Positions 5,515 to 26,296 of a stretch of DNA of 64,000 nt are shown here, piece by piece. The stretch comes from Diploptera punctata (Eukaryota > Arthropoda > Insecta > Blattodea > Blaberidae). The notes beneath the pieces were generated by a model that was given only the letters and a program-made list of their open reading frames with translations, was not told the DNA's origin and searched no databases. The position numbers and the translations under genes are program-made. The DNA is taken from assembly GCA_030220185.1 (NCBI GenBank), contig JASPKZ010010276.1:124001-188000 (forward strand), in the 5' to 3' direction. Each line of letters opens with the position of its first letter. The first letter of the stretch is position 1.

Positions 5515-5715
5515 TAGATCATCGGTAGATTAATGTCTTTGACTTCGTCCGATTCCCAATAGCCAATTTTGTCGGTCCATCCAATCTCCTGATTGTAGAT
5601 GTTTCTCCTTCATGTATAAATGTATTCCCTGACTCCAGGAGGTTTTAGGTCTTCCTCTGCCTCGTCATCCCTCAGGTTTCCATTCCAAAACAGATTTTAG
5701 TAGCTGAGTATTTGA
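5515..5715 (-). mobile_element. LINE-B extreme C-terminal fragment
   Basis: The minus strand reads RGRGRPKTSWSQGIHLYMKE, then DWMDRQNWLLGIGRSQ and a stop, which is the basic C-terminal end of a LINE polyprotein. One in-frame stop precedes it. The WSQG-H block is shared with 58200-60060. Confidence 0.7.
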
Positions 5716-5987
5716 GGACGAGGGGATCATTTCATCTTATATTTTCTGTCAAATTCTTCCTAAAGGGCATATCAGGCTCTTAGCTGTAGTGAAAGCAATT
5801 GATCTAAGGATGGACACCTGAAAAATCCCTGGTCCTCCAGGTTGGGGGTTGATGCAGTAGGCCAGTTCCCTCCCACTAGAAAAAAAATGCAATGCTGAAA
5901 AACCTAATAGAGATAAGCCAGTCAGATTAAAAGGAAGGCGAATCAAGCTACGAAAACGAACTCTGCTAATTGGAACATGGAACGTAA
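5716..5987 (+). mobile_element. LINE endonuclease domain, piece 1 of 3
   Basis: Near 5930 the plus strand reads RIKLRKRTLLIGTWNV. TWNV is the first conserved block of apurinic-type LINE endonucleases, where N is a metal-site residue. The frame stops at CGTAA (5983-5987), where a LINE-A copy begins, and resumes in frame after the second CGTAA (7199-7203). The upstream bases 5716-5929 are probably the 5' part of this element; nothing else is recognised there. Confidence 0.7.
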
Positions 5988-6194
5988 TAATAATAATAAT
6001 AATACTTTATTTATTCTGGCAGAGTTAAGGCCATAAGGTCCTCTCTTCCACTCAACCAGTACAAATACAAATAAATATTCGACAAATATAGATATACACT
6101 ATACTAATTATAAACACTTAAAGATACAATAAATGTAACAATGTAAATGTCATGTACAAACAACATTTTATAGGGTAATAACAATAATGATACG

Positions 6195-6243
<49 letters not shown>

Positions 6244-7198
6244 TAATAATAATATAAATATGATACATTATACGGGAAACACCAATTAATATATATATAT
6301 ATCTTACACTGGATAATAATGAAGTCGATTTTAGAGCAAATATAAATTTAGATTTCTTTTAAAAGATGCCAATGTCCGGCAGCCCCTTATTTCTTGTGAT
6401 AGGGAATTCCAGTTGCGAGAAGTGGAGATGGTATATGACATGGAGTGATGTGATGTCCTATGTTGCGGTATATTAAGTAAGAGACTATGTTGTGATCTTG
6501 TGTTTAAGTTATGGTTTGAGGATAGATACTGGAAACGGGATGATAAATAATTGGGAATCGAGGTATGTATGATCTTAAATAGGAGAATTAGACAGTGCGA
6601 TTTTCTTCTCTCTTTTAGATGTAGCCATGACAATTCGTGGAATAATGGAGAAATGTGTTCGTATTTTCGAACATTAAATATGAATCTGATACACATATTA
6701 TGGACACGCTGCAGTTTGTCCGATAATCCGTCACTTATGTCAGTTAGTAGAACGTCACAGTAGTCAAAATGCGGCATCACTAAAGTTTGGATTAAAATTC
6801 TTTTAAGAATTGTAGGAAGAAAATGTTTAAGTCGCTTTAGGGAATGCATTATGGAGAAGATCCTTTTAGATGTTTGTTTTACTTGCTCATGCCATTTTAA
6901 ATTAGAATCTAAGTAAAATCCCAAGTTTTTAACGACGTCGGTATAAGGAATTTGTTCATTATCTAATATGACAGCCGGCATATTGCCATTGTTTATGAGG
7001 TGTAATAGCCTTGGATGTCCGATAATTATTGCTTGCGTTTTGTTTACATTTAGTTTCAGCCCATACTGTCTGGACCATAAAGATATATGCCTGAGGTCAG
7101 TGTTTACTTTGTCAATATATTCATTAATTTCGTCAGGCCTAAAGTGTGTGTAAATCTGTAGGTCGTCGGCGTAAAGATGATGCTTGCAGTTTTGTAGT
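5988..7198 (-). mobile_element. LINE-A RT fragment, copy 2, inserted into another LINE
   Basis: A 216-residue open frame (6331-6981) begins soon after the YADD box (near 7165, HHLYADDLQIY) and runs to RGCRTLASFKRNLNLYLL and a stop. The 3' UTR (5988-6330) holds an internal (ATT)n and the block GGCCATAAGGTCCTCTCTTC, then an AATAAA-like signal and a short (ATT)n tail. The 5' part is truncated just before YADD. CGTAA occurs at both junctions, consistent with a 5-base target duplication. This is the cleanest LINE-A C-terminus in the window. Confidence 0.85.
6195..6254. repeat. (AAT)n array inside LINE-A 3' UTR
   Basis: The same position in the 3' UTR is occupied by (ATT)n in the plus-strand copy at 29358, so the array belongs to the element. 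Confidence 0.9.
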
Positions 7199-7374
7199 CG
7201 TAAGGATTAAAATGGAGGAGGTCCTTAAACAGATGGAAGATTTGAAGCAGGACATAATCGCACTGACAGAAACAAAGAAGAAAGGAGAAGGAATAGAAAC
7301 TTCAGGATCATATGTTCATATTTACAGTGGTGTTAAGAAGAACGAAAGGCTAAAAGAGGGGTTTCAATATTATA
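7199..7374 (+). mobile_element. LINE endonuclease domain, piece 2 of 3
   Basis: Continues piece 1 in frame as RIKMEEVLKQMEDLKQ, then DIIALTETKKKG (the endonuclease E block, with catalytic E) and SGVKKNERLK. A one-base deletion near 7350 shifts the frame, after which KRGVSIL is seen. It ends with AATATTATA (7366-7374), the left target duplication of a palindrome. Confidence 0.75.
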
Positions 7375-7620
7375 GTAATATTGTGAAAAGAAAAATTAAT
7401 GTCTGAACCAGAAATCGAACTGTGGACCTCTATTTCTCCAGACTAGTGTGCAGCCCATTACACAATTCTAGACCTGGCGGCGGACGAAACGAGAATCATA
7501 GATTTGTATATGTGGAAAAAATTGTTAATGTTTGTGCCAGGTCTAGAATGGTGGAGAACTACAGGTTCACAGTTCGATTCCTGGTTCAGACATTAATTTT
7601 TCTTTTCACAATATCACTAT
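7375..7620. mobile_element. Palindromic tRNA-like foldback element
   Basis: Two inverted arms (about 7375-7490 and 7536-7620) match except for a 24-base stretch present only in the left arm. Each arm contains a tRNA-like B-box segment (right arm CAGTTCGATTCCTGG) followed by ATTAATTTTTCTTTTCACA. It is flanked by a perfect 9-base duplication, AATATTATA, at 7366-7374 and 7621-7629. It behaves like a foldback or inverted-SINE insertion. No transposase is encoded. Confidence 0.75.
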
Positions 7621-7813
7621 AATATTATAATATGATCCATTATTAGAACTGTGTTAAAATAACAGTATTGGAAAATGTTAAAAAGTACTTATCAAGAAGA
7701 AATATGAGATATATCACAAACTGGGAAGCAATAAATGAAAACATAATTAAAATGAATATATCTCTTTTTGGTATAAGATGCTCTATATTAGGAATATATT
7801 AGTGAGGACGAAA
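7621..7813 (+). mobile_element. LINE endonuclease domain, piece 3 of 3
   Basis: The plus strand reads NWEAINENIIKMNISLFGIR and then CSILGIY, followed by SEDEN after a stop. This is the mid-domain block of the same endonuclease. The element is cut by the (AAT)n array at 7814, and its RT does not follow. Confidence 0.65.
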
Positions 7814-7815
7814 AT

Positions 7816-7887
<72 letters not shown>

Positions 7888-7927
7888 TTAATAATAATAA
7901 TGATGATGATGATAATAATAATAATAA
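7814..7927. repeat. (AAT)n array
   Basis: About 110 bases of AAT with a few GAT units. Confidence 0.95.
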
Positions 7928-8044
7928 ACTTGGACTTGTTTTAAAAATGGCTTACTGCAATACGTTTGTGCAATCTAATTGTTTTATCCCTTCTTCTGTG
8001 TAAAATTAACATCTCCAATATGACTTACATGTCAAAGATTAGTT

Positions 8045-8160
8045 CAGATACACTGTAATTCTTCTTTGGCGCTACAGCCCATATTGGGGCCTGATCTCCA
8101 TGCATATCCATCCATTTGTCTTCCAGTGATCCATTTATAGAATTCTGGATCGCATACTAG
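8045..8160 (-). mobile_element. LINE-E-like 3' end
   Basis: The minus strand gives GGGCTGTAGCGCCAAAGAAG, a 3'-terminal block with a GAA-rich tail typical of an arthropod LINE family, preceded by short coding traces (MDGYAWRSGPNMG). Confidence 0.45.
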
Positions 8161-8980
8161 ATAAATACAGAACCTACATTGGTGGCCGTAGAAGTTCTGA
8201 GGTTAACAGGATGCAAAATCACCGCCGAAGGCAGCAGGGAACTTGAAGAGGAAAGAGAATAACCCACACCAGATCTAAGAGGAGATTTAAAATTCTCTTC
8301 TTCGTCTGTAAAGGGCACAGAGTTTTCTTGTCAGATGTTGAATTTTGCATAAGATTAAACTGAGACAACATGAAAACAAAATACGGTCTGACGCCAGAAT
8401 TTAACAAGTCACTTCTCTCATTTATGAGTAACTAGAGAATATAAGAACAACATAAATTCTCGGACATACAGTAAAAATACATATATTCTATGTGAAGTGG
8501 TCTACTATCTGAAATGTTTAGTTATATACTATTGCTATGTGAAGTGTTTTACATTGAATAATATATATTTTTATTTATTTCTCATTTAAAGACGCTCGAA
8601 TATTAAAGCTCATATAGTATCCAGAATCACTAGATATATCCAATAGGCTGTGTGGTTCTGTAACGTTTGTCATTATTTCAATTTAATCTTATAATATTCA
8701 ATAGTTGAAATTAGGAGCAAATAGATTGTTGCAATTAAATTCAAACTCAGTATTTTTCTTGTGAACTGAAGAAAACCACAAGAAAAACTTCACAGATGTT
8801 GTTGTGTACTGGAACTTCAACTAGAAACCTTCCGAACATATGTATCTACACAACTCCTAATTCATTATATGTATATTTCTATGTAAAATAAAATGCGTAA
8901 AAATACAAAATGACTAAGGAAAGTATTATAGAAATTGCCCAGAAAAGTGTATATTTAATATGTATATATGTATATATATA
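8161..8980. other. Unassigned AT-rich sequence
   Basis: No gene, repeat boundary or motif recognised. Confidence 0.5.
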
Positions 8981-9717
8981 GAGCGTGTTGCAAAAAAAAA
9001 ACACCGACAACGGAGGTGAGGCGGTATATTGAGATATGTGGATAATTTTTTAATAAGGTACCTATGTCCGGAAATGATGCGTTTTCACACTATGAGCAGC
9101 TAACTTCTCAAGAGTTCAGCTACTTGGATTTCATTACTGTCGTAGTAACGTCACGTTTTCAAAATATCCGCCTCTCATCTCATTTCAGAACGTACATCGG
9201 CGCTGTAGTGATTGGCGCGCACGTTCAAATACGCCTGGCCTCGTTTGAATTATTTCTGTTACAGCGTGAATTCAGGCTATAAGATCCATACGTGGCTCTA
9301 CTGGAATCTGATAAACAGACAGTTTCATGCCGCCCAACAAAAAGTAGTTGAGAGGGTTAAGATCAGGTGATCTTGGAGGCCATGTGACTGATAGCCCTCT
9401 GCCAATCTATAGACCTGGATATGTGATATCCAAATGTCTCCTCACTAATGTGAGCTGCATTGAAGTGAGCTGGAGCTCCGCCATGTTGCAGCCACATTCC
9501 GTTGCGAAGCCACGTATCACAGGTTTCATACCAGTGAGGTGTTGTCAAGTAATTAGTCTTTAAGTCCTTCGAACTAACACTGATCGTACGACATAATTAA
9601 CTAGTCGTAGTGTGAAAACGCGTTATTTCCTGACATTGACACCTTATTAAAAATGATCAAAATATCTGAATATACTACCTCACCTCCGTTGTCGATGGTT
9701 TTTTTTTTGCAACGCCC

Positions 9718-9719
<2 letters not shown>
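8981..9719 (-). mobile_element. Tc1/mariner-like remnant, about 740 bases
   Basis: The ends are inverted repeats of roughly 90 bases (GAGCGTGTTGCAAAA at the left, TTTTTTGCAACGCCCTG at the right) next to TA-rich DNA. The minus strand encodes WLQHGGAPAHFNA, the second catalytic-Asp region of Tc3-like transposases. The expected D is G here, and the N-terminal DNA-binding part and the first catalytic D are missing. It is an internally deleted, inactive relative of the copies at 34828 and 53240. Confidence 0.8.

Positions 9720-9755
<36 letters not shown>
9719..9755. repeat. (TA)n array
   Basis: TA dinucleotide run at the right end of the Tc1-like remnant, the expected target composition for this superfamily. 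Confidence 0.9.
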
Positions 9756-10340
9756 GAAATAAAAAGTAACATGAGTATCTATCTGTATCCATATATCCCC
9801 ACATGGAACAAGAGTGCTCCCGTGAGGAAGTTACATAACCAAGTTAATTTAGTTACGCTTATTTCCGTACAAATTTCATGGAGTTACAAGCGGTTAGCTT
9901 ATTGCCTCATAGAGACTAATAAACGCAACGAAGGTGTTGTTTGGATAGAATAGGATGATTCAGTTATTTCTCAGAGATTCAAATTTAGGATTTTAGGTTC
10001 CATCATGAGCTCGGAAATATGAGTATCGGAAAATAATTATGGAAGGAAATTTAGGATACATTCTGTTCATATTTTGGACATATGGAGCAATAAAAATGGC
10101 ACATATTCATTGCTCGCCCGATTTTCAAAGATATTTTACCTTTAATATTCCCTCCCTAAACAGATTAAAATTTAAGCTGGATTAAAAACATTTAGCACTT
10201 GAACTCGGCGAGTTTCTGTTTTTTTCTAAAAACGAAGACAGCACTGAAGGTGCACAGATCCGTTGTTAATCCATCGTAAGTGTCCAGTTAGTCCGCTCAA
10301 CGAATCACTATGAACAGGATTCCCAACTATTTCATTTGTA
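9756..10340. other. Unassigned sequence
   Basis: No gene or known repeat recognised. Confidence 0.5.
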
Positions 10341-10540
10341 CAGTTCTAACTGTCCATAGCTGCCTCATATGCAGCAGACTCAGGTTAGATCCCCGGTCGA
10401 TACAAGTTTTCTGGGTTATGTGTTTTTTGTTTTTTTTTTCTCAACTGCAAGACAAATGCCAGAAAATTTTAAGGCCCAATGGCTCCGAATATTATATGAC
10501 CATCATCATCTTCTTCTTCTTCTTCCTCTAGGCATGAAAG
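10341..10540 (+). mobile_element. SINE-1, degraded copy
   Basis: Recognisable blocks in order: GTTAGATCCCCGGTCGATAC (B-box region), AAGACAAATGCCAGAAAATT, AAGGCCCAATGGCTCCGAAT and ATGACCATCATCATC. The A-box region is badly decayed. Confidence 0.65.
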
Positions 10541-10548
10541 CAGACAGC

Positions 10549-10549
<1 letters not shown>

Positions 10550-10599
<50 letters not shown>
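10550..10599. repeat. (ATT)n array
   Basis: Lies at the 3' end of the minus-strand LINE-D copy and may be its tail. Confidence 0.95.
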
Positions 10600-10600
<1 letters not shown>

Positions 10601-11345
10601 TACTACAAGGTTTAGGCTATGCAGCCTGTTCCGGCGAAGTTAAAAGTGGAGTCCATCTTCTTCGTGGTCGGCCAACATCTCTTGTTCCTCTGGGATTATA
10701 CAGGAAGGTTCTTTTTGGTATTCTTTCGTTGTTCATTCTCATTAAGTGTTCTGTCCATTTCTTATTATTTTCGCTGATTTTATCTTCAATTTTATATATA
10801 TTTAATTCTTCTCGTATAGTTTCATTCCTTATTCTATCCGCTCTTGTGCATCCTTTCACATTACGTAAAAACAGCATTTCCGCAGTATGTATCCTGCTTT
10901 TATCCCTTGATTTCATTATCCAATTTTCACTTCCATACAACAACAAAGGAACAGCCATTGCTTTATATAATTTATGTTTCGTATCTTTCCTTGTTTTCCG
11001 ACCTAAGGTTCTTTTTATGGTTCCACAAATAGCCTGAAATTTATTTACTTTACTTTCTATATCTTTATTTTCTCTATAAGTTATATCACATCCTAAATAT
11101 TGGAAATGTGATATTTGTTCTATTATTTTGTTATCCAGTACAATTTTTGATCTAATTCCATATTTACCAATAAATGTCATTAATTTTGACTTATTTATTG
11201 ATATTTTACAATTATATCTATTGGCTATTAATTTAAATGTATATGCTAAGATTTGGAGCTCATTTTCAGATTCTACTAAAAGTACAACATCGTCAGCGAA
11301 TAATAAAGCATTTATTTTATCTTTATTATCAATTAATATTCCTAA
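10600..11345 (-). mobile_element. LINE-D reverse transcriptase, C-terminal half
   Basis: An open minus-strand frame of about 240 residues runs without a stop from LIDNKDKINALLFADDVVLL (catalytic DD pair at about 11285-11313) through FQYLGCDITYRENKDIESKV, LLLYGSENWIM and RNVKGCTRADRIRNETIREE to GRPRRRWTPLL and a stop near 10617. This is the palm-to-thumb half of a LINE RT. The fingers region and the endonuclease are missing, the element being cut at the (ATT)n array at 11345. The intact frame suggests recent insertion. Confidence 0.85.

Positions 11346-11409
<64 letters not shown>
11345..11409. repeat. (ATT)n array
   Basis: ATT array at the 5' truncation point of the LINE-D copy. Confidence 0.95.
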
Positions 11410-11479
11410 GTTATAAGCAAGATATTCAAAATTGGAAAAAAATAAATAAAAAAATAAAGCCATACGAAAAAAAATTAAA

Positions 11480-13929: not shown

Positions 13930-14350
13930 ACTTTTGACAGATTAAATGGAGGCCTTTCGGAAGTTAACTTCCACCATCAGCAGGATGAGTATGTACTACT
14001 AGGTGTTATTGTTTTACGACGCTGTAGACGTTGATTGTCTTGGAGTGTCGTTAGTAGCAACTGACTTGTTTTAACGATATCATATAATGGGTTGACGATT
14101 GGGGTGTGTTCTCATTTAGTAGTAAGGTACTGCTGACTTCTTTTTAAAGTAAATGTATTCTAATAAATTTATCTTAGCTGGAATTTTTTCTTTGTGAACT
14201 ATCGTGAGGGCATTTTCTATTGTGTCCAATCGGTGACCAGCGTTAATGATGAGTTTGGCATAGCTTGATTTTTCACCCGCGTACATAAAATCTTTGAGGT
14301 ATTCCTCTTATCTTGTATTAAATTCTAGACTTTTTTACAATAACACTTGA
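13930..14350 (-). mobile_element. Penelope-like element, endonuclease C-terminus and 3' region
   Basis: The minus strand reads EEYLKDFMYAGEKSSYAKLI, INAGHRLDTIENALTIVHKE and KINLLEYIYFKK. This is the conserved end of the GIY-YIG endonuclease of Penelope-like elements (the GH block and the final EYIYF). Downstream on the same strand is a hammerhead-like motif at 13951-13980. RT and the GIY-YIG core are missing. Confidence 0.65.
13951..13980 (-). ncRNA. Hammerhead-ribozyme-like motif in Penelope 3' region
   Basis: The minus strand reads CTGATGG, stem GGAAG with loop TTAA and CTTCC, then GAAAGGCC. This matches the CUGANGA - stem II - GAAA layout, but G replaces the final A of the first box, so activity is doubtful. 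Confidence 0.35.
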
Positions 14351-14389
14351 AAAAAAAACACACAAGTGACCACTCATATTTATAAAAGT

Positions 14390-14720
14390 CATCATCATCA
14401 TCCTTCACGGATTAGGTGTTTGCCTGTTCCGATCTCACATCTATTCAGCCCAGCGCTTTCTTGGTCTTCCCACCGATCTTCGTCCTCCAGGATTATACAA
14501 TAGTGCCATATTTGATATTATATCCTCCGTCATTCTTTACAGATGTTCTATCCAATTGTTCCTGTGTTCTTCTATTTGTTGAAGAAGTGGTTGTACTTTT
14601 AGTCCTCTCTAATATTATCTTTTCAAATATGTTCTTCTCTTGTACAACCTTTTCGCAGCCCATAGGAATCTCATTTCCGCTGCCTGAATTTACGTTTTTT
14701 GTAAATTGAAGGGTTTGGCT
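14390..14720 (-). mobile_element. LINE-D C-terminal fragment
   Basis: Minus-strand traces: QAAEMRFLWAAKGCTREEHI, corresponding to AEM-FLR-VKGCTRADRI of the LINE-D copy at 10600, then in other frames NRRTQEQLDRTSVKN and the final basic segment. Several frameshifts. Confidence 0.6.
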
Positions 14721-14763
14721 GTAAAACATATTAATTGACAAATTCTTGAAAATTGAGTTATAG

Positions 14764-14907
14764 CATGTAAACTGTGATATGTGACCTTATGAAACATTTT
14801 GTGCATGTAGTTTTTACATATATCAATAGGTGGCAGATGGTCAATAAATGGTAAATAAAACTATGTGCACCAAATGCTTCAGAAGGTCACATATCACAGT
14901 TTACATG
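14764..14907. repeat. Foldback hairpin with 25-base perfect arms
   Basis: CATGTAAACTGTGATATGTG plus five more bases (14764-14788) recur as an exact reverse complement at 14883-14907, with shorter matching arms inside (CATTTTGTGCA and TGCACCAAATG). A small MITE or solitary foldback is likely. Confidence 0.75.
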
Positions 14908-14979
14908 TGTGCCGTGTCTCTGATCTGCTACCTTTTTTGTGCACCGTATCTTTAGAGGATTTAGTCATATATTCCATTA

Positions 14980-15760
14980 CACTCATAGTAGCATCGGGTT
15001 CATAGCTATCAGTGCTATTTCTAATCCTTTGCCCGGGCCCATGAGAGGCAAAGATTGATTCATCCTTCCCATCTAGATTCATAAACATTAATTAATAATA
15101 ATTCTTAAAAACACACTGTACCAATTTATGATTCTTAGTTAACCTGAATATACTATTTATAACCATGAAAGCTAGACGGGAAAAAGGAGCGCATATAACT
15201 TTGAGGAAGCTTGTATACGGGAATTTATGTAGCGTAGCTAACATACAATAATCAGACATCGATATTTACTTAAAATGAGATTTAATGTTTAAATTACACG
15301 TCTGAAGTTGAAAAGTGAAATTAAATATAAACATAGCTTGATCATTCAAATATTAAAGAACAAACAATAAGTAATAACATAAATAACATTGTTTACACAA
15401 TCAACCACTCATACATACTTTTTAGTCCTGCCTAGTGTGCCTTACCCTGGCTTGCCAGACCAAACCCAAAATACGCAGCTCTCCTGGAGCTCGCGTCCTC
15501 CAGACAACAGACAAGTGTTCCAACGAAAATCTATGATCGAATGATAGAGTTCACTACGTGTTTGGCCTATTTGAGAGTTCCGAAGTAGAAGGAGAAGGTG
15601 CGCACTACAAACAGAGCAAAGGTAGGGGTAGGAAGGAGAATGGGAGTAGATACAAAGATAAAAAGGAAATTGGCATAGTTCACGAATCTCACTGTAGAGG
15701 GAGGATAACAGCACAGATGTATCGAACCGAAATAGCACTTTCGGTTCACATGCTCCGACT
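14980..15760. repeat. Single arm of foldback family P
   Basis: Shares with the right arm of the 49500-51545 palindrome the blocks CCCGGGCCCATGAGAGGCAA, AGGAAAT-TTGGCATAGTTCA and AATAGCACTTTCGGTTCA, in the same order and orientation. The middle (15080-15430) is more diverged. Confidence 0.6.
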
Positions 15761-15879
15761 CAATTTTCAAGAATTTGTCAATTACCACGTTTTACAGCCG
15801 AGCCCTTCAATTAATAAATATACCATTCGCTGCATAACACTATTCGTTTAAATGTACGCTCGTTTTGTATTACTTCATT

Positions 15880-15906
15880 TATAGAATAGAATAGAATAGA
15901 ATAGAT
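15880..15906. repeat. (ATAGA)n array
   Basis: Five pentamer units at the 3' end of the minus-strand LINE-A copy 3, where other copies have (ATT)n. Confidence 0.9.
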
Positions 15907-18412
15907 TTATTTAGCCTGGTGGAGTTAAGGCCATGTGGCCTTCTCTTCCACTCACCAGAACAAGCATATGTTACATATGAATACAAAACAAATACAATAA
16001 TAGTCATATAAAACAGGACAAACATATGTTACACATGAATACAAAAAAATTACAATAGTCATATTAAACAGGACAAACATATTACATATGAATACAAAAA
16101 AAAGTTACAATAATAGTCATTGAACAATTAATTATCTGTCATATTGAATAATAATGAAATTAATGTCTAATAATAGAATGAAACTAAATACAATTAAAAT
16201 TAAATTAATGACACAATGAATAAAAAAGGAATAACAGCTCGAATCTAGTATGCATAAAAGAAGAGAAAAAATACAAAGAAAGTAATAAACTACAATGAAT
16301 TAATCTACGTTTTTTATACAAGGCACTAGGTAAATATATTAACAAATCCTAAGTCTATTTTTATTAAATAATGCAAAAACGCATTATTAATTCTTAAAAA
16401 GTAGTATTAGTGAGTTGTTTCTGTTAGTGATTTTATTTTCAATTTATTTCTGAAAGATGGTAAAGTTTGGCAGTCTCTGACATAGGGTGGAAGTGAATTC
16501 CATGTTCTAGCAAGAGAAACTGTAAAAGATTTCGAATAATAGGTAGTATGATGAGGAGGGATATAAAGGACACTGTGCTCAAGGGATCGGGTATCTAAGT
16601 TATGTGTATCAGAGAGTTTAGTGAAGCGGTGTGATAAATAATAAGGTAAAGATGTGTGTAATATGTTATAGAGAAGGCATAGGGAATGGATGGTTCTACG
16701 ATCTTGAAGACGAAGCCATGACAATTGTTCCAGGGATGGTGTAACGTGATCAAATCTACGTATACCACAAATAAAACGTATGCAAGAATTGTGAACACGT
16801 TGAAGTCTTTGGGTAGAACAGTATTTAGGTCAGTAAAAAGAGTATCACAATAATCAAAATGGGGCATTGCAAGTGGTTTTCTACTAGCATTTTTCTTAGA
16901 GAAAACGGTAAATAATTTCTTATACGATTTAATGAGTGTATTATTGAGAAGATAGTTTTGCAAATGTTTATTTATTTGTTTATTCCAAATTAAATGTTTA
17001 TCCATAAACACTCCTAGATTTTTACTGTCTCACTATAAGGGATCTGAACCCCATTAAGTGACACATGTAATACTGCATTTGTGTTAATTGAGGATAATAG
17101 TCCTCTGATGGCCCAATAATGATTGCTTGTGTCTTTCTAGGATTTAATTCAAGTCCATATTTCTCTGCCCACGCCGTTAGCGAGTCAAGGTCCTCATTAA
17201 TTTTGGTTACCGCGTCATTTAAAGAATATTTGTCTGAGTGAAGGTAGATCTGCATGTCGTCCGCAAATAAATGATGTTTGCAATGTTTTAGGGAGTCAGA
17301 TATGTCGTTTATATAGATTGAAAAAAGCAATGGGCCGAGCACCGAGCCCTGTGGAACTCCAGCTTTACGGTAGGTCCAAGAAGAGCGTAATGTAGAATTT
17401 CCTACAACATATTGCTGGCGCTCACGAAGGTAGGAGTTGAACCATTGCGTGACACTGTCAGAAAGTGAGAGGTTTTTTAGTTTAAGCAACAATAAGTCCA
17501 AGTCTACCGTGTCAAATGCTTTACTAAAGTCAAGTAGTGTAAGAATAGTAAGTTTTCGATTATCAGATGCTTCGCGTATGTCTTCACATATATTTAGTAG
17601 AGCAGTATTTGTATTGTGTCCTGTCCTAAAGCCTGATTGGTATTGATCTAAAAGGTCGTGTTCAGTTAGGTAGTCAGTCAGTTGTTTGTGGACTAATCGT
17701 TCCAAAGCTTTTGAAAGGGTAGGTAAAATACTAATGGGTCGAAAATCGTTAGGAGTTAAGGGAGTTTTTATTTTCGGGAGTGGCGTACAATTGCTTGCTT
17801 CCATAATGTGGGATATATAGAGGTTTGTAGTGAGGAGTTGAAAACATAAGTTATGGTAGGTAGTATAACGTCGATTATTTTGTTAAGTAGAGTGATATTT
17901 ATACGGTCAGTACCTTCTGCTTTTGTTTTTATTCGTTTGAGAGCTTTCTTTATGTCATTTTCTGTAAGATATGAAAATGGAAATGTTCTCTGTCTGGTGG
18001 ATTTGTCAATAGTAGTTCACTTATTGTATGTGTTTTGTCTTTAGGAGTAAAGAATGTGCTTGTAAAATGGTTATTAAGTGTGTTCAGAGAAACAGGTAGT
18101 TTTTCTACCTGTGTGTCTTTCCTTCCTACACCCATTTTATTCAGATTTTTCCAAATATCTGGGTTACTGTTATTAGGTTCAGTAAGGCTGTATAGATGTC
18201 TAAGTTTGGCGTTTCTGATAGTTTGTGTAGTCTTGTTACGTAACCGTTTATAGTGATTAAGATTTATATCAGTTTTGTCGACTCTATATTTCCGATATGC
18301 TGCGTCTCTTTCAGTCATCAAGTCACGAATATTAGCAGACATCCAGGGAGCAGGGTGTCGTTTCACTAGTTTAGTTTTCAGTGGAGCGTGCCTGTCATAT
18401 AGTTGTAGATGT
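15907..18412 (-). mobile_element. LINE-A, longest copy (copy 3), RT domain nearly complete
   Basis: Minus-strand order: N-terminal linker (17950-18366, APWMSANIRDLMTERDAAYR), then RT (17022-17804) with NDFRPISILPTLSKALERLV, YQSGFRTGHNTNTALLN, LLDFSKAFDTVDLDLLL (catalytic D), GVPQGSVLGPLLFSIYIND, and HHLFADDMQIY (catalytic DD, near 17260), then two frameshifted C-terminal pieces (16595-17011 and 16407-16724) ending RDCQTLPSFRNKLKIK. The 3' UTR (15907-16400) contains GGCCATGTGGCCTTCTCTTC. Endonuclease and ORF1 are missing upstream of 18412. The RT order matches CR1/Daphne-like LINEs; the clade name is inferred. Frameshifts make it inactive. Confidence 0.88.
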
Positions 18413-18469
18413 GTTTAAGTAAATACCATAGACTAGATGATGAATAGTCACTCAGTTCCATCTACATAC

Positions 18470-18650
18470 ACGCGTCGGTCCAGGTGGACTAGTAGTTACT
18501 CTGCTCGCCACTGGTTTCCGGGTTCAAATCCAACCGAGTCCCATGGATTTTAAGAGTGAGAAATTCTGATCATGGCTTCCTTCGGAAGGGAAATAAAGCC
18601 GTAGGTCCCGTGTCGTAAATTTACGCCACGTGATAAAAATAATCTCAACT
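18470..18650 (+). mobile_element. SINE-2-like copy, divergent
   Basis: tRNA-like head (GGTGGACTAGTAGTTACTCT, B-box GGGTTCAAATCC) followed by CCCATGGATTTTAAGAGTGA and AAGCCGTAGGTCCCGTGTCG. It parallels the SINE-2 at 46530 but with a different tail. Confidence 0.6.
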
Positions 18651-18689
18651 CTAAAAAAATATATCTCTGAGCAAACGTTTAGAACTCAT

Positions 18690-18835
18690 TGGTCCGTCGC
18701 TGTGGCGTAGTCGGTAGAGTCCCTACCTTCCACTCCGGCGACCCGGGTTCGATTCCCGGCGGGGTAGGTGATTTTTAAATCTCCACCTTGGGTCTGGGTG
18801 TGTGTCCTGTCTTGTGTTTGTATGTGTGAATCAGA
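18690..18835 (+). mobile_element. SINE-3, single copy
   Basis: GGTCCGTCGCTGTGGCGTAG with GACCCGGGTTCGATTCCCGG (B-box) and GATTTTTAAATCTCCACCTT. Near-identical head to the first unit of the trimer at 13190. Confidence 0.8.
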
Positions 18836-18990
18836 TAAAAAGGTTAACAAAGGTAAAACAAAAAGGAAGAAAGAAAACGAGAAAGGAAGAAATAAAAAAA
18901 ATCACGCCCAAATTTGAACAGCGACGCTAATTACTTTGACTTAAAAAGCGTAATTAGGGGCCGAATTCACCAACAGAGGTAACTGTATTT

Positions 18991-19546
18991 TAAATACCTT
19001 TTCGGCATTCTTGGCCGTGTCTTGCAGTGTTGTCTTCTCGACGTTTCGTCACCTACTGTGGGTGATATCTTCAGGATATGTTGCTTGTTTAAATTGTCGG
19101 AATCATTTTATTTATTAACACTCATGTTTTATTAAAACTATACGTTATTTTACTCGATTAAACCGAGAAGCCATAGCGATATATACACATAAACAAAATA
19201 ACAGAAAAGAGGAAGGTTTGAGAATCAATAAAACATGGTATCCTGTCCTAGAAAAGTGTCAGATAAAACCTTACGACAAATATAGCAAGTCATGACGTAT
19301 ACCATGACAACAACTAATAAGCGAGGTGCTCTAACACTAACAAAATATAAATGATTTACTCAGATAAATACTTACAGTAAAATCACACAAGTTAAGTTAG
19401 TTAGCAGTTTACAATGAGAATTTAAACAAGCAATATCTCCTGAAAATGTCACCCACAATAGGTGACGGAACATCGAGAAGAAAAAAACTGTAAGATACGG
19501 CCAAGAATCCCGAAAACGTATTTTAAAATACATAACAATTTATTGG
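18991..19546. mobile_element. Inverted Penelope-type terminal repeats
   Basis: Two inverted arms (about 18991-19100 and 19420-19546). The outer segment reads CTTGGCCGTGTCTTGCAGTG, then GACGTTTCG and GATATCTTCAGGA in the left arm, and the reverse order in the right. These blocks resemble the pseudo-LTR ends of Penelope-like elements. The central 320 bases have no RT or GIY-YIG. It is probably a non-autonomous or solo remnant. Confidence 0.55.
19040..19074 (-). ncRNA. Hammerhead-ribozyme-like motif
   Basis: The minus strand reads CTGAAGA, TA, stem TCACC with loop and GGTGA, C, GAAAC then GTC. Both conserved boxes and a GUC cleavage triplet are present, with stem III reduced to about one pair as known for Penelope hammerheads. 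The partner arm near 19440-19475 (+) has CTGAAAA and GGAAC instead, so it is degraded. Confidence 0.45.
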
Positions 19547-19659
19547 AGGTAACTGTATTTCACCAGTTTAAGCTATGCATTGCACAGAGGGAAACTTATG
19601 TAATTAGTTACCTCTGTTGGTGAAAGCGACCCAAAATAAAATTACTAACTGTATAAATT

Positions 19660-20223
19660 CGCTTTCTGGAAATGCGGGCTATTATGAGTTACAGAGACTC
19701 TTGATGTCCCACCTCCTTTCAAAAAACTTTAAACTGAAAATATATAAAACTATTATTCTACCGGTCATGTTATATGGGTGCGAAATATGGACTCTTGCTT
19801 TAAGAGAGGAAAGGAGATTACAAGTATTTGAGAATAAATTACTTAGGAAAATTTTTGGACCAAAGAGAGATGAACAGACAGGTGAATGGAGAAGACTGCA
19901 TAACAATGAGCTACATGGTCTTTATAGGAAGCCAGATATAATAAGAACAGTTAAGTCTCGTAGACTGCGATGGGCAGGACATGTAGCACGTATGGGGAAT
20001 GAAAGACTTGCATGGAAGCTTTTTGTAGGAAAGCCAGAGGGAAAACGCCCAGTTGGTAGACCAAGAATGAGGTGGGAGAATAACATTAACTATGATTCGA
20101 GGGAAGTAGATTATACAGGGAATGATTGGAAAGCATTAGCTCAGGATAGGGATGTATGGAGAGCTTATGTCCGTGCGGCCATGAACCTACGGGTTCGATA
20201 GTGCCAGTGAGTAAGTAAGTAAG
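19660..20223 (+). mobile_element. LINE-C C-terminal fragment with target duplication
   Basis: A single open frame from LSGNAGYYELQRLLMSHLLS through LYGCEIWTLALREERRL, RRLRWAGHVARMGNERLAWK, PEGKRPVGRPRMRWENNI to VRAAMNLRVR and a stop (20199-20201), then a (GTAA)n tail. TAACTGTATAAATT flanks it at 19646-19659 and 20224-20237, a 14-base target duplication expected from target-primed reverse transcription. It is severely 5'-truncated: RT core and endonuclease are missing. The frame has no interruption, so insertion is recent. Confidence 0.9.
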
Positions 20224-20304
20224 TAACTGTATAAATTATCTCCTCTTTAATTTTTCTACAAGTCTACAGTAATACTAGAACCAAATAATCTTTAATGTCT
20301 CTTA

Positions 20305-20410
20305 GGGTCGGTTTCACCAACAGAGGTAAGTGTATTACGCCAGTTTATGCTATACATTATACACGGGGAAACTGGCGTAATACAGTTACCTCTGTTGGTG
20401 AAACCGACCC
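20305..20410. mobile_element. Palindromic MITE, 106 bases, TTA-flanked
   Basis: Arms of about 40 bases starting GGGTCGGTTTCACCAACAGA and ending with its reverse complement, with one mismatch seen and a 20-base centre. TTA is duplicated at 20302-20304 and 20411-20413. Three-base TWA duplications and G-rich ends fit PIF/Harbinger-type MITEs; that assignment is inferred. Confidence 0.85.
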
Positions 20411-20413
20411 TTA

Positions 20414-20925
20414 GTGTACTTGGTAAGGTTGTATTCCTGAAAAAAAAAGTTATAGAAGTGTTCCTTACTCTCGCCTATATATAATCCTCGGGTTTTGTAA
20501 ATATTCACATTTTTTGTCGAGAAGTAATTTTAAAGAAGTTTCGTACGTTATCGGCATTACATTTTATAGTCATTATTATCTGCTATTCAGCAGGTATTTC
20601 GTACTGATTTTGTAGTATCGTAGATTATTCAGAACAACAGAGAGTTTGTTCTAGCAGTTCATGACAAGGAAAAAACACAATGTGAAATGAAAGTAAGTTA
20701 TTAGACTAGGCCTACATTAGAAAAAGTCTTGTGTAGTTTTAGGAGAATCTGAAGAAAAACTGATCATACATTATTCTATGTTACTTATAAACGAATCAAA
20801 GAAACAGGACAATATTGAAGATAATGAAGACTAAGAATTTGTTTATATAGATATTGCTAAAAATGTAGGCACATGATCAGACGTTGTAACCTGTATTCCT
20901 ATAGACCTTACATACTATATTTATT
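20414..20925. other. Unassigned sequence
   Basis: Nothing recognised. Confidence 0.5.
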
Positions 20926-21692
20926 GACTATTTAACTCATGCCGCAAATGGGAGTCAATAACCAATCACGTTTCAATGAATTTTGTTTTACAACCAATCT
21001 CACTCGTCTTTCACCCCGATATTTATCAACTTAAGTTTATCATATTAAAGAAAGTTCTCCCTTTTTAATATTCTGAACAAATCAGGGCATTATTTTGCAC
21101 TGGCCGATTCTCTAAGAATTCAACGTATGTTTAATAATGCAATTTATATGTCAAGGTGTAAGAATCCTAAAATGCACGTGGCTCTAAGATTGTATATATA
21201 GTGCACGAATGTAACCAGATACTGCTTGCGAGATATAATAGAAGAATTGTAGCAATTTATTATACCACAATACAAAGAAACCACTGTTTGCACTTTCTTA
21301 AACATATTACTTCCCTGGTATTTACGCTCCAAACAAAATTGACATATTTACATCATAGGACATCACAACTTAATTAATAACCTATAATGTTGGTTATAAT
21401 ATACAGTTTAATGTGTTTCATTTTTTCTCCACTAGGGTGCATTCTTACAATAATGCAATCCTAATTGGCAATAAATAATATGATGTAGTTGCGGTGATGA
21501 ACAAATCAAACATAACAGACGTTTGTCATTTGTTTTCAAACATCGCATTTTACATTAAATATACACATATTTTAAAATAACATATTTAAATAATGATTTG
21601 TGAGAAAACAAGTTAATTTTATTCATTAAATAGTCCTAACAAATAGTCCACTCTTGATTTACAAATTCTCTAGATAAATTGGCATTACTTAT
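20926..21692 (+). repeat. Repeat M, full copy
   Basis: GACTATTTAACTCATGCC to GGCATTACTTAT. Closest to the 4499 and 51838 copies, sharing the longer middle with the GTGCACGAATGTA segment and AATTTATTATACCACAA. The terminal hairpin is reduced. Confidence 0.75.
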
Positions 21693-21924
21693 GATAAATA
21701 TATGAAGTTAGGAAATAACACTATGAGATTTATTTTAATTCAATTTGAGATTTTTTGACTCGTTTCACATTCCTTGATATTTATGCAGACCTTGATTTCG
21801 TTCACTGACTTTGTGACTTTCTCGATGCAACACAACTGCCGTCTTGCTGTTGTCCCTCCTGAACATTGATTTCCATTTTCTGTGGAGTGATATTTTTGCA
21901 ATTTAAATTTAAAGTAATATCATC
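21693..21924. other. Unassigned sequence
   Basis: Nothing recognised. Confidence 0.4.
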
Positions 21925-22204
21925 TTATATATAAAAATTAATGTTTGTTTGTTTGTATATGCACGGCCATACCGTTGATCCGATTGTGATGGTTTTTTTT
22001 GCAAAATGTTCAGGAGATTCCCGGGATGAACAAAGGCTATAAGAAAGTTGTGATACTCAACTCCTGCACCCTTAAAAATCGCCCTTCGTAGTGGAAAACG
22101 TGAAAAAAGTAACACTTTGGACGCTTAAATGGCTTATGCTGCCTAAACCATAAGAAATACACAAAATTAATGCACACAGAATTGAATATCTCAAAAAGCT
22201 CTAC

Positions 22205-22546
22205 GTCCCGCGCCGTAGCCGAGCGGTTAAGGTAGGAAGCCTTGGCGGAGAGCTACGGGACTTGCGCTGGTTCGATTCTCCATGGGGGAAGAAATTTTCT
22301 CATGGTATTTCGGCCAGTATGGGACCGGTGCCCACCCAGCATCGTGAGGCAATTGGGTAGCTACAATAAGTAGCGGCTCCAGGTTGAGGAACCAGCTATA
22401 ACGGCTGGGGGACTCGACATGCTAACCACATGTCACCCCTACACTGGCTGTTGATCATCTACCTCTGTGATTGACACATGTGGATGTGAAGGGCCAGCAG
22501 CCGGCTGGTAAAAGGGCAACCGCTGAAAAGTGGAAAGACCCTCAAT
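22205..22546 (+). mobile_element. SINE-4, tRNA-headed, full copy with target duplication
   Basis: Head CGCCGTAGCCGAGCGGTTAA resembles a class II (Leu/Ser-type) tRNA, with B-box GGTTCGATTCTCC. The body has CAGTATGGGACCGGTGCCCA, TAAGTAGCGGCTCCAGG and CTGGGGGACTCGACATGCTA, ending near GACCCTCAATCGG. AAAAAGCTCTAC occurs at 22193-22204 and again at about 22549-22560, a 12-base target duplication inside repeat H. Confidence 0.85.
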
Positions 22547-22647
22547 CGGAAAAAGCTCTACAAAAAAGTCCGCGACAGCATATGTTTATCTCTTACGGAT
22601 GACTCACAATAATCATTTTTGTCTTTTATTGATACCAAGAGTCTCGT

Positions 22648-22790
22648 GCCGTAGCCGAGTGGTTAAGGCAAGAAGTCCTGGCGCAGGACTACAGGACTTA
22701 CGCTGGTTCGAGTCTCTACGGGGGAAGAAATTTTTCTCATGGAATTTCGGCCAGTATGGGACCGGTGCACAGTGGGTCAGAAATGAAATC
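22648..22790 (+). mobile_element. SINE-4 head fixed inside repeat H
   Basis: GTGCCGTAGCCGAGTGGTTA, B-box GGTTCGAGTCTC and CAGTATGGGACCGGTGCAC. The same truncated segment sits at the same place in the H copy at 41500-41640, so it was captured before H multiplied. Confidence 0.75.
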
Positions 22791-23313
22791 TACTGGGGGG
22801 GGGGAGAAACTGTTTTGACTCGCTCTCATCAATTTATCTTTTTTTTTCACTCTAATATAATTGTTATTTGACGGTTCTTAACTTATCTGCAAAGGAGGGT
22901 ACAATTTAAAAGTGGAGGATTACTTGAAATTCGAAATTAAAACTCCTGTACATCAACTGGACCGATTTGGATGATATTTTTTTCCTGTGTGTTTGAGTGG
23001 GTCCCTGGATGGTTTAGATTCACAATTGGACTTGGTAGGTGGCGCGGCGATCGGGATATAGGATTTGTTTATGTCAGATGCGTAGTCATCTGCTTTATCG
23101 TTATGTTCCGACATAACTACGTGACGTCATCATTCACACTCCTTGAGCCACAACAGAAGGCTGTAAGAGGTTTTCTTGCGAACTTATTTAATAATATCTA
23201 ATTATGTCCTAATTGCTGAATTTTATGGTAAAAAAGTAACATATTTTTATCGTCCGCCCATGACATGAGAATTGAACGATCGGGCAGGACAACGTCTACC
23301 GGGTACGCTAGTA

Positions 23314-23790
23314 ATTTATAAACTATTACTTTTATAATTTATACTTTACACTATTTTTATAATAAAATGAGAACAAAATATTATTCATAATATCATAAAA
23401 GTGTTTCTTTGAATACGTTACTTTGACAAATGAGGACCACGTAAATTACATCTGTAATTTATTTCTCCAAAAAATCCAATAGATCTGTGTTAATGTTAAC
23501 AATATTGAAGATTGCTAACAGTAATAAATTACATAGTTGAACACTCTCTTTGTAAGGTTTGAAATTAATTAATTTATCCACATCAGCGCATTGTAATGGG
23601 ATCTCTTTACATTTTACATCAGCGCAGCCGTATGACAACCAAAGAAGACCTATTAGCACAGAGCAATTGATTGTATGATTAAAAATAAAGCAATTATTAC
23701 ATGAAACTCCCAACGATTACAATGGTTTAGGAATTTGTTATATCGATAACATTACAACAAGAATTTAAAAGTGTACGCTATAATTATGTT
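23314..23790. other. Unassigned sequence
   Basis: Short frames only; nothing recognised. Confidence 0.45.
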
Positions 23791-23885
23791 AAATTCCAAG
23801 GAGCAAATCCTCTGTGACGGACTTTAACCCCTCGGTGTTGAGTCCAAAGATGTTGAGGGTCGTAATAGAACGAAGCCTTTGTTGT
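23791..23885 (+). mobile_element. SINE-2 internal fragment
   Basis: Matches the 46617-46690 part of the full SINE-2 (AAGGAGCAAATCCTCTGTGA, GACTTTAA, GAGTCCAAAGAT) without head or tail. Confidence 0.55.
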
Positions 23886-23888
23886 GAC

Positions 23889-23963
<75 letters not shown>
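23889..23963. repeat. (AAT)n array
   Basis: Pure AAT for about 75 bases. Confidence 0.97.
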
Positions 23964-23964
<1 letters not shown>

Positions 23965-24549
23965 TATTTTATTTACATTTATTAGAATAGTCATGTTTGT
24001 CTAATGCTGTAATTATATAATATAATTAAAAACATGTTTTATACCTTCCAATGTGGATTTAAGAATGGTTTGTGCAGTATTGATGTAGCTGAGTATTTAA
24101 CAATTATTATTTCCGGTTTTTATGATAAGTAGAGCACCTGGTCATTTTATATAATCTATAAATAGCGTTTTAATGCGTTAATAATTCACTTATTATTTAG
24201 AAATTATATTATTATTGAATCACTGATACTAATTTGTATGTATTCCGTCCTATTTACTTGACCGTTTAAACACTATTTTCATTACGGTGTCAATTCTGAT
24301 GTATAAAAAACCGTGTGTGGTGATCCCCAAGGATATGTCCTAGGTCTAGATTTGTTTTTAAATATGTTAAATGATTTAACATAGGTAACGAATCCACTTT
24401 GTTAGCTGGTGATCTATTATATTACTCTTCTATCAGCGAAATTAAATTAGACTGACTGACTGACTGAATAAGGCGAAGTCTAGTTTCGCCCAGTGAGCTG
24501 CGTATGTTAGAACCGACTAGGGCTCTTTGGCAGCTAAGTAGATAGTTAT
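23964..24549. other. Unassigned sequence
   Basis: No supported feature; a short GACT run at about 24451-24466. Confidence 0.45.
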
Positions 24550-25742
24550 TAATTAAATAAAAATAAAACGTAGTTTTATTTGATTTTCGTATTTATTATA
24601 TAATTCAGTGACAGCTGTTTCGGTACACTGTACCTTCTTCAGACATGTTAAAAAATTATGAATTGTGTTCCAACTGATCTAAGCAACAATACAACAATAT
24701 TTATTTAAATTTTTAAATTTAACAAAGGGGATTCATTCAAATCAAGTTGAGAATTTAACAGTTTTTTACTACTTTTAAACTTATTAATTTCTACAGCCTC
24801 CAAAAGATCTAACTTCTTACCCTTATCACAAATATGTAAAATTTCAAAATTTGGATCGAAACAATGATTAAATTGGAATAGGTGGTTAGCATAGTTTGAA
24901 TTTTCTAAATTTCTGTTATATGCTCTCATGTGTTCCTTTATCCGAGATATAAAAGGTCTACCAGTTTGTCCTATATAGACATTGTCACATGTGCCACACT
25001 TCAATTTATATACACCTGATAATTTTTCTTTTTTTGTTTTGGTTTTATTGTTTTTTATTATATTTTGTAGAGTTTTATTAGTTTTAAATGCCACATTAAT
25101 GTTCAACTTTTGAAGTGTTTAGATATTTTATTTGAAAGTGGGCCTATGTATGACATTACGACATATTTCTTATTGTTTTCTTTGGGTACAGGAAAAACTT
25201 TGTTAATTGCTTTTTTGTAATTAATATTCTTAATTAAACATTCTATAATTTCAGGGTCGTATCCATTATTAACAGCCAATTGTTTAATGATATTCAATTC
25301 ATTATTATATTCCAAGGGTGAAAGAGGGATTTTTAAAAGTCTATGAATGTAACTATTAAAGGCTGCCATCTTATGAGTATATGGGTGAAGAGAAGAACTA
25401 TGGATTGTGGTATCAGTATGAGATGGTTTGTGAAAGATACCAAACTCAAACTTATTATCAATGTGTTTTATTGATAAATCCAAGAAATTTATACTATTAT
25501 ATGTTTCTAATTCCATTGTGAAATTAATACTTCTGTGAATGTTATTAATAAAATTTAAAAAGGAATTCAATTGTCTTTTGGTTCCTGTGAAGCCTGCTAT
25601 GACATCATCTACATACCGATACCAAAATAGAACATTTCTAGCTAATACATTCTTATGTATGATTTGTTCTAAGTCATCCATAAAAATCTCTGCCAAAAGA
25701 GGGCTCAACGGATCACTATGTTTTATTTTTATTTAATTAATA
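24550..25742 (-). mobile_element. Penelope-like element with RT and GIY-YIG endonuclease
   Basis: The minus strand carries two abutting frames. The first (25103-25708) begins SPLLAEIFMDDLEQII and includes RYVDDVIAGF (catalytic YVDD, about 25605-25630), then NSINFLDLSI and HKPSHTDTTIHSSSLHPY, all typical of Penelope RT. The second (24705-25106) encodes the GIY-YIG endonuclease with SGVYKLKCGTCDNVYIGQTG and a downstream R and E of the RIKEH block, ending LNESPLLNLKI. The frames overlap by four bases, where family members have one fused protein, so a frameshift is present. The RT fingers are lost (5' truncation near 25740). A 20-base inverted repeat flanks the element. Confidence 0.9.
24610..24642 (-). 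ncRNA. Hammerhead-ribozyme-like motif at Penelope 3' flank
   Basis: The minus strand reads CTGAAGA, one extra A, stem GGTAC - AGT - GTACC, GAAA, then CAGCTG and TC. The core boxes and a GTC cleavage triplet are intact. CAGCTG is self-complementary, as expected for dimer-type hammerheads. The extra A and a weak stem I lower confidence. Confidence 0.45.
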
Positions 25743-26296
25743 AATATGGATTTTCATCAAGTAAACACCAACTCAATTGATTAAGTAGATAGTGGCTATC
25801 GTTACGTGGTTTTAGTTCATTTAATCTGAGCCTACTTGGCGGCGCCAGTATTTGCGTGCCGATGGTGATGAAAATTGGACAGAGATTTGGGATGTGATGA
25901 CCTGAAGTAGGGCATCAGAATCCACACTGCCTTCAAGCCGAGAGTCGGAAATCCAGCAGTGTGGAATGAGCCACGCCACTCCAGGTGAGAGCACGTCGCC
26001 AAATCTCTGGCTGGATTTAATGAGGGTTATATTGGATAAATATGTTTTTTTATGAACAGCACACCGCTGAGGCAAGGTGTCCTATACTGCGTACCATAGC
26101 ATTTCATGCAAAGATGTAAATGTATACATCTTGCTTACATTTTAGCCATTATCACTGTTACACATATTCACCAATTGCGACAGGAACAACAAGCGCTCCA
26201 TTGGAGTCTAAAGCCAGCCAATATAGGCTGGAAGTCTTGGAGTGCCTGTTGTGCCTGTTCGGTCATTAAGGGGTGAAATACAGGCTGCGTCTGTGC
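25743..26296 (-). other. Sequence downstream of Jockey-type ORF1
   Basis: On the strand of ORF1 this follows its stop codon. It should hold ORF2 in a complete element, but I find no endonuclease (no TWN block) and no RT. A short open frame at 25821-26075 is not recognised. Confidence 0.4.

What the first reader, a model, noticed from the sequence alone, without database searches (positions are those of the whole stretch)
13951..24642. Hammerhead-ribozyme-like cores at three Penelope-related loci
Minus-strand motifs at 13951-13980, 19040-19074 and 24610-24642 share a CTGA(A/T)G box, a 5-base stem II and GAAA, with different stem sequences, so compensatory change is likely. Two of the three lie beside recognisable GIY-YIG coding sequence. 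Hammerheads in Penelope-like element ends are established knowledge. Deviations: final G in the first box at 13951, one extra A at 24635.
Basis: partly seen in the sequence, partly recalled or inferred. Interest (0 to 1): 0.75.

Follow-up and report, generated by a model that had tools for sequence, protein, structure and literature searches.

The report
Dimer-type hammerhead ribozymes in Penelope elements
Three stretches of this probably insect genome carry the recognisable core of a small self-cutting RNA, each in a different family of Penelope-type jumping elements; such ribozymes are already known from these elements, so this is a well-supported new example of a known kind.

Summary
All three minus-strand motifs are hammerhead-type cores in repeat families with 655 to 2,265 first-look candidates. 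Stem II covaries: 46 of 46 cells pair, 16 changed on both sides. One exact form occurs 26,651 times in the genome, against 119 for the reversed pattern. Rfam finds nothing, probably because stem III is no hairpin. Hammerheads in Penelope-like elements are established, so this is a new member of a known kind. A genomic footprint of cleavage was sought and not found (1 of 60 junctions). A by-product: in 20 of 21 family-2 inverted pairs exactly one arm has the short "tail".

The parts
13946..13984 (-). Family 1 hammerhead copy: stem I 2 bp here (3 bp CTG/CAG in the family majority), CTGATGG (family CTGATGA), extra T, stem II GGAAG/CTTCC, GAA, palindrome AGGCCT, C17; predicted cut between 13949 and 13948
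14119..14307 (-). probable C-terminal GIY-YIG remnant upstream of the family 1 motif
   Evidence: frame; 29% identity over 56 aa to 24705-25118; no Pfam match
18984..19099 (-). Family 3 arm (tail-less) holding the motif
19034..19078 (-). Family 3 hammerhead copy: CTGAAGA, extra T, stem II (outer pair A.C broken in this copy), GAA, palindrome ACGT, C17; predicted cut between 19040 and 19039
19408..19539 (+). inverted mate arm of family 3
19436..19480 (+). decayed fourth hammerhead copy (CTGAAAA, GGAA)
   Evidence: E 0.0013
18976..18990 (.). left copy of a 15-bp direct repeat GAGGTAACTGTATTT (probable target duplication; part overlaps the element end)
19546..19560 (.). right copy of the same 15-bp repeat
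24606..24646 (-). Family 2 hammerhead copy, core intact: stem I AC/GT 2 bp, CTGAAGA, extra A (24635), stem II GGTAC/GTACC, GAA, palindrome ACAGCTGT, C17 (24610); predicted cut between 24610 and 24609
24542..25714 (-). Family 2 Penelope-like arm, tail-less 3' end, 5' truncated; holds motif, GIY-YIG and RT end (boundaries approximate)
24705..25118 (-). GIY-YIG frame
   Evidence: Pfam E 8.4e-4 (below cut-off)
25103..25732 (-). reverse transcriptase frame, stop to stop (partial; its first codons lie in the inverted arm)
   Evidence: RVT_1 E 2.4e-6 (below cut-off)
25715..25783 (+). inverted short arm carrying the roughly 40-nt tail (I read the tail as the start of the next unit; not tested)
24535..24543 (.). 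left copy of 9-bp direct repeat TAAGTAGAT (target duplication; its last two bases may belong to the element)
25782..25790 (.). right copy of the same 9-bp repeat

Best explanation
The three motifs are minimal type-I hammerhead ribozymes of the dimer type, in the terminal repeats of three different Penelope-like retrotransposon families of one genome. Shown from sequence: core CUGANGA...GAAA...H17, a covarying stem II, a short stem I, one extra base between A9 and stem II, and a different self-complementary stem III in each family. Inferred: two copies (two RNAs, or two units of one transcript) pair through the palindrome, so that each supplies the catalytic strand that cuts the other 3' of C17. 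In this window only the family 2 copy (24606-24646) looks core-intact and well paired in stem II. The 13951 copy has A9 changed to G; the 19040 copy has an intact core but weakened stems I and II. Whether the RNA cuts in vivo is not shown, and the inserted copies retain the uncut motif. That family 3 is a Penelope-like element rests on its motif, inverted pairs and tail, not on coding sequence.
For: Family alignments give one architecture with different letters: F1 stem I CTG/CAG, II GGAAG/CTTCC, III AGGCCT; F2 GT/AC, GGTAC/GTACC, ACAGCTGT; F3 TCTC/GAGA, GTCACC/GGTGAY, ACGT. Further families in fetched loci: GCCA/TGGT, GCCCTC/GAGGGC, ACGT; and, with 1 bp of stem I, AAAACA/TGTTTT, ACATGT (which listed palindromic motifs only). 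Without the palindrome rule, 73 motifs in 56 loci: exactly one extra base in 73 of 73 although 0 to 2 were allowed; a palindrome after GAA in 57 of 73. Stem II: 46/46 cells paired, 16 changed on both sides, 0/500 shuffles as high; sliding the partners drops pairing to at most 61.5%; 186/210 against 143.7. Genome counts 26,651 v 119 and 2,917 v 1. Core intact in 46 of 49 F2, 33 of 44 F3 and 12 of 21 F1 rows. RT and GIY-YIG frames adjoin F2, and RT relatives such as P0003, P0018 and P0026 carry both domains. Precedent: minimal hammerheads in PLEs that may act as dimers (passages of PMC6155905, PMC7761336); palindromic stem III (passages of PMC3088659, PMC6466107); an unpaired A after A9 in CChMVd plus (passage of PMC3705267).
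Against: No Rfam hit. Energy model: the explicit hammerhead dimer (-20.5, -16.3, -19.9, -23.9 kcal/mol) is never the minimum of the two-strand fold (-28.4, -28.0, -26.8, -31.4) and about equals two monomers, except F1, where it is lower. Stem I is only 2 bp in F2 and 1 bp in one other family. The palindrome is broken in 6 of 21 F1, 5 of 49 F2 and 15 of 44 F3 rows (11 of the 15 are ACAT, which fits CpG decay), and the core in 9, 3 and 11 rows. Of 34 neighbouring listed motifs within 5 kb, 32 are inverted and 2 lie in the same direction, so cis tandem dimers are uncommon among the first 100 places. No excess of element ends at the cut site: 1 of 60. No activity test was possible.
Confidence: 0.85

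Rival explanations
1. The motif is a relic or a protein-binding hairpin of the Penelope terminal repeat; it looks like a hammerhead by descent but no longer cuts, and selection keeps stem II for RT or endonuclease binding.
For: Inserted copies retain the uncut motif; no element ends pile up at the cut site (1 of 60); in the anole element, hammerhead mutants still insert in vitro and no RNA-seq ends at the cut site were found (PMC11167929 main text).
Against: Unpaired catalytic letters, not only stems, are shared by all families, and F2 keeps the core in 46 of 49 rows (the scored F2 copies are 97-100% identical, so this conservation is cheap). In the same anole paper the ribozyme does cut when protein is added.
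Confidence: 0.12
2. The stem-loop is a chance or unrelated terminal hairpin of three transposons.
For: No Rfam match; a CM hit at 38630 (E 0.17) falls on a stretch that I read as YADDV, a reverse-transcriptase-like motif (letters), so core-like letters do arise by chance.
Against: 0 of 200 shuffles with the full descriptor; 26,651 v 119 and 2,917 v 1; same frame with compensatory stems in five families.
Confidence: 0.03
3. The palindrome works mainly as a dimer linkage: it pairs two template RNAs (or two units) so that both target strands are extended, one from each of two start sites, and the ribozyme cut follows later.
For: 20 of 21 F2 inverted pairs have the tail on exactly one arm; direct repeats of 7-12 nt flank 19 of 19 pairs tested (mean 9.8 v 4.8 for re-dealt flanks), so a pair looks like one insertion; in 11 of the 14 F2 pairs readable on both arms the arms differ at one C/T site, 3 are T/T and none C/C; none of 13 F3 pairs has the tail on both arms.
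Against: Nothing links the palindrome to the pairs; two pseudo-LTRs of one tandem RNA would explain the C/T difference; the 35-mers of many pairs listed are identical, which suggests a common source; the loci were picked by similarity to a C-bearing query. A tail on one of the inverted repeats was reported before (PMC3846280 passages).
Confidence: 0.12

Closest known systems
Minimal type-I hammerheads of Penelope-like elements (Cervera and de la Pena 2014; Lunse, Weinberg and Breaker 2017; neither paper held here; known through passages of reviews, and recall)
   Same: association with PLE terminal repeats; very small stem III; abundance; expected dimer mode
   Different: nothing shown to differ; whether the one extra base between A9 and stem II and palindromes of up to 8 nt are described there could not be checked
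Poseidon element of Anolis (PMC11167929, main text read)
   Same: hammerhead near the pseudo-LTR/ORF junction, GIY-YIG and RT, two start sites that define the tail
   Different: in that element the frame begins at stem II and the cut lies inside it; in F2 a candidate ATG (my reading, frame not tested) lies about 66 nt downstream of the cut
Hammerhead of CChMVd plus strand (PMC3705267 passages)
   Same: one unpaired base after A9
   Different: a viroid RNA; no common origin implied
Newt and ASBVd dimer hammerheads; palindromic stem III of Aedes and other repeats (passages of PMC6155905, PMC3088659)
   Same: short stem III that can pair in a dimer
   Different: those passages do not place them in Penelope elements

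Membership tests
Hammerhead ribozyme | CUGANGA ... GAAA core with cut site UH (H17) | tested here: met
   F1-F3 majority sequences; 12/21, 46/49 and 33/44 rows intact; the window's F1 copy itself has A9 to G
Hammerhead ribozyme | stem II with compensatory change | tested here: met
Hammerhead ribozyme | stem I flanking the core | tested here: inconclusive
   4, 4, 3, 2 and 1 bp in five families, G.U counted; short in F2
Hammerhead ribozyme | stem III, closed by A15.1-U16.1 | tested here: inconclusive
   possible only between two copies, through palindromes (57 of 73 motifs); the dimer is not the energy minimum
Hammerhead ribozyme | match to an Rfam hammerhead model | tested here: not met
   Rfam is one yardstick, not part of the definition
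Hammerhead ribozyme | self-cleavage 3' of H17 | not testable with these tools
   an indirect genomic footprint was sought and not found
Penelope-like element | RT plus GIY-YIG in one element | tested here: met
   F2: both domains, in different frames and both below Pfam cut-offs, relatives with both domains; F1: remnant only; F3: none in the window's family 3 stretch by a search with the F2 proteins, fetched F3 loci not searched
Penelope-like element | inverted or direct pseudo-LTRs, 30-40 bp tail, target duplications | tested here: met
   F2; F3 inverted pairs and tail, flanking repeats weak there (mean 5.8 v 4.5, highest of 500 shuffled means 5.5); not tested for F1
Dimer-type PLE hammerhead | motifs in tandem in the genome | tested here: not met
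   2 of 34 listed neighbours within 5 kb run the same way, 32 are inverted (first 100 of 26,651 places)

The most novel reading that the evidence does not exclude
The self-complementary stem III of Penelope hammerheads is a dimer-linkage site: it joins two template units so that the two cut target strands are extended from the two start sites, one each, giving head-to-head inserts with the tail on one arm only; cleavage then separates the templates.
Probability: 0.12. Interest if true: 0.75.

Novelty: new member of a known kind. Interest (0 to 1): 0.38.

Why it matters
One review calls the role of the PLE hammerhead unknown and a mystery (PMC7761336, passages). This genome offers thousands of copies, five families with four different palindromes, and insertions whose two ends can be compared, so questions about dimer cleavage and two-strand initiation can be put to sequence data and simple in vitro tests. 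As a find, the ribozyme itself is expected.

Tried and rejected
Cleavage footprint: a pattern asking for a non-C before the first base after the cut gave 305 places. Of the 20 fetched, by my reading of the printed flanks 10 begin at the cut and 10 hold the motif with a changed H17. That looked like ribozyme-made 5' ends, but the pattern selects for it. In the first 60 of 6,040 places of a downstream 39-mer junctions are spread widely, 1 of 60 at the cut and 1 a base before it; 16 run past the end of the reference used. Junctions were called without gaps, so some are small indels. Several of the 60 places are also among the 20, including the one at the cut (L132 is the place of L090). I dropped the idea.

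Two separate template RNAs as a firm claim: weakened, because the query carried the rare C (0 C among the 45 readable of those 60 copies) and because many pairs listed share the same 35-mer, which fits one source.

CM hit at 38630: by its letters an RT YADDV motif (my reading), rejected. DNA alignment A1 misaligned F2 and was not used. BLAST of the F1 motif against phages was empty and says nothing about animals.

Rows dropped: L032 (haplotig of the window); L002, L012, L015 (duplicates) but not; seven places with a length other than 35 left out; two of the 21 pairs (second pair of L034, and L058) left out. Of 29 loci, nine gave no pair inside the fetched flanks. A count of C-bearing F2 copies was asked twice, not answered, and given up.

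Full report
What was checked. The window lies in a 3.12-Gb genome held without a name. Of 83 relatives of the RT frame, 7 carry an organism name and all 7 are insects, the best a beetle (57% identity over 69% of the query), so the host is probably an insect. The three motifs are present on the minus strand as described. With a descriptor the window has two hits, both palindromic; shuffles have 0.05 on average without the palindrome rule and none in 200 with it. I added the palindrome rule after seeing the motifs. The 19040 copy misses this descriptor because one stem II pair is broken.

Family copies decide the matter. Searches of the whole genome gave 655, 1,549 and 2,265 first-look candidates for families 2, 3 and 1, of which 40 each were scored. 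Aligned copies (49 rows of F2, 44 of F3 with some duplicates, 20 of F1 plus the window) give three versions of one plan: stem I, CUGANGA, one extra base (U, A, U), stem II, GAA, a self-complementary stretch that begins with A and ends with U, C17, stem I. Stem I is CTG/CAG, GT/AC and TCTC/GAGA; stem II GGAAG/CTTCC, GGTAC/GTACC and GTCACC/GGTGAY; the palindromes are AGGCCT, ACAGCTGT and ACGT.

A check without the palindrome rule (56 fetched loci, drawn by families 2 and 3) finds 73 motifs with CTGANGA, stem II of at least 5 and GAA. All 73 have exactly one extra base, though none or two were allowed. A palindrome follows GAA in 57; the other 16 are largely decayed F2 and F3 copies, most often ACAT for ACGT. 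Two motifs in L009 (ATCACGAT, ATTGCGAT) each lie one transition from the palindrome ATCGCGAT, which would fit the same decay (inference). By rows, the palindrome is intact in 15 of 21 F1, 44 of 49 F2 and 29 of 44 F3.

Covariation. On 11 family sequences (typed; row F2a equals the window's family 2 motif) all 46 scorable stem II cells pair, with 16 cells changed on both sides; none of 500 shuffles is as high on these or on the covariation score, while 7 and 26 of 500 reach the number of pairs with double change and of further pair types. Sliding the partner by one to three columns drops pairing to 61.5% or less. Among 35 distinct 35-mers (30 from the first 100 of 26,651 genomic places, five from family 3) 186 of 210 stem II positions pair, against 143.7 +- 5.2 when halves are re-dealt, 0 of 2000 as high. 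The outermost pair is the weak one (20 of 35). Sequences are related by descent, so these controls overstate independence; the change between families is the stronger point.

Abundance. CTGANGAN{10,30}GAAACGTC: 26,651 against 119 with the pattern read backwards. CTGANGAN{10,24}GAAAGGCCTC: 2,917 against 1. The 39-mer at the F2 3' end: 6,040 against 0. A second contig (C9216) matches this region at 100% with all three queries, probably a haplotig, so counts include duplicates.

Rfam. No match at gathering score and no hammerhead among the 17 at E <= 10. My explanation, that a hairpin stem III is missing, is an inference. My own model (four stem II pairs in use) finds the three motifs at E 3.4e-5, 1.1e-4 and 1.4e-4, the decayed mate at 19436-19480 at 1.3e-3, and a hit at 38630 (E 0.17) that I read as chance. 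The first of these is in the training rows.

Element anatomy. In F2 the motif lies about 60 nt 3' of the GIY-YIG frame; the window copy runs from about 24542 to 25714, then an inverted arm with the tail to 25783, all between copies of TAAGTAGAT (24535-24543, 25782-25790). Across 21 F2 inverted pairs in 20 loci, 20 have the tail on one arm and not the other, and one has it on neither. All 19 pairs tested have a 7-12 nt direct repeat at the outer ends (two bases of the element end were included in the comparison), mean 9.8 against 4.8 for re-dealt flanks, highest shuffled mean 6.2 in 1000. In F3, 13 of 13 pairs are head to head; 9 have one clear tail, 2 a long and an intermediate one, 1 an intermediate and none, 1 none; no pair has two clear tails. 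In one search's first 100 places, 32 of 34 neighbours within 5 kb, and 22 of 22 within 1 kb, are head to head. A tail optionally on one of the inverted pseudo-LTRs, and target duplications of 8-10 bp, were described in Adineta (PMC3846280, passages), and two start sites and extension of both strands in Anolis (PMC11167929, main text). The counts here agree with both; the Adineta paper prefers self-priming on an antisense template for the inverted repeats.

How it works. Most likely two units pair through stem III and each core cuts the other 3' of C17. Reviews say that PLE hammerheads are minimal, lack helix III and may act as dimers (passages), that dimers need a palindromic sequence and a tandem arrangement, and that stem III is palindromic in several such ribozymes (figure legend). 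Here the palindrome is met; the tandem arrangement mostly is not. In the anole element the ribozyme cut only with protein present. In energy terms the dimer hammerhead is possible but not the minimum.

A negative result. If the cut made the 5' ends of templates, insertions should begin at the base after C17. A biased pattern suggested so; the unbiased sample did not (1 of 60).

Verdict. The ribozyme is a new member of a known kind. The primary papers on PLE hammerheads were not held (one search was a look-up under a wrong identifier), so I cannot say whether the extra base and the palindrome lengths are already described there. Paper searches made.

Noticed in passing
24535-25790 and loci L034-L060: Inverted-pair insertions of family 2 carry the short tail on exactly one arm (20 of 21) and often differ between arms at one C/T site (11 of the 14 readable on both arms).
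   Followed up: partly
contig C9216 of G000, 581-11451: A second contig matches the window at 100% with all three 201-bp queries; probably a haplotig, so repeat counts are inflated.
   Followed up: no
38630-38686 (+): Weak CM hit (E 0.17) on a stretch that reads YADDV, an RT-like motif; a chance hammerhead-like core.
   Followed up: partly
20298-20416: Long near-perfect inverted repeat (GGTCGGTTTCACCAACAGAGGTAAC...), MITE-like; a similar end flanks the family 3 insertion at 18976-19560, which may sit inside such an element (read).
   Followed up: no
13252, 13439, 18742, 54481 (+): Short matches to the Rfam tmRNA model (E 0.027 to 3.1), probably T-arms of tRNA-derived SINEs.
   Followed up: no
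L017, L020, L010:454, L009: Further hammerhead-like families in flanks of fetched loci: CTGACGA T AAAACA GAAT TGTTTT GAA ACATGT C (L017, L020), CTGAAGA T GCCCTC...GAGGGC GAA ACGT C (L010), CTGACGA T GAACAT GATT ATGTTT GAA ATCACGAT (L009).
   Followed up: partly
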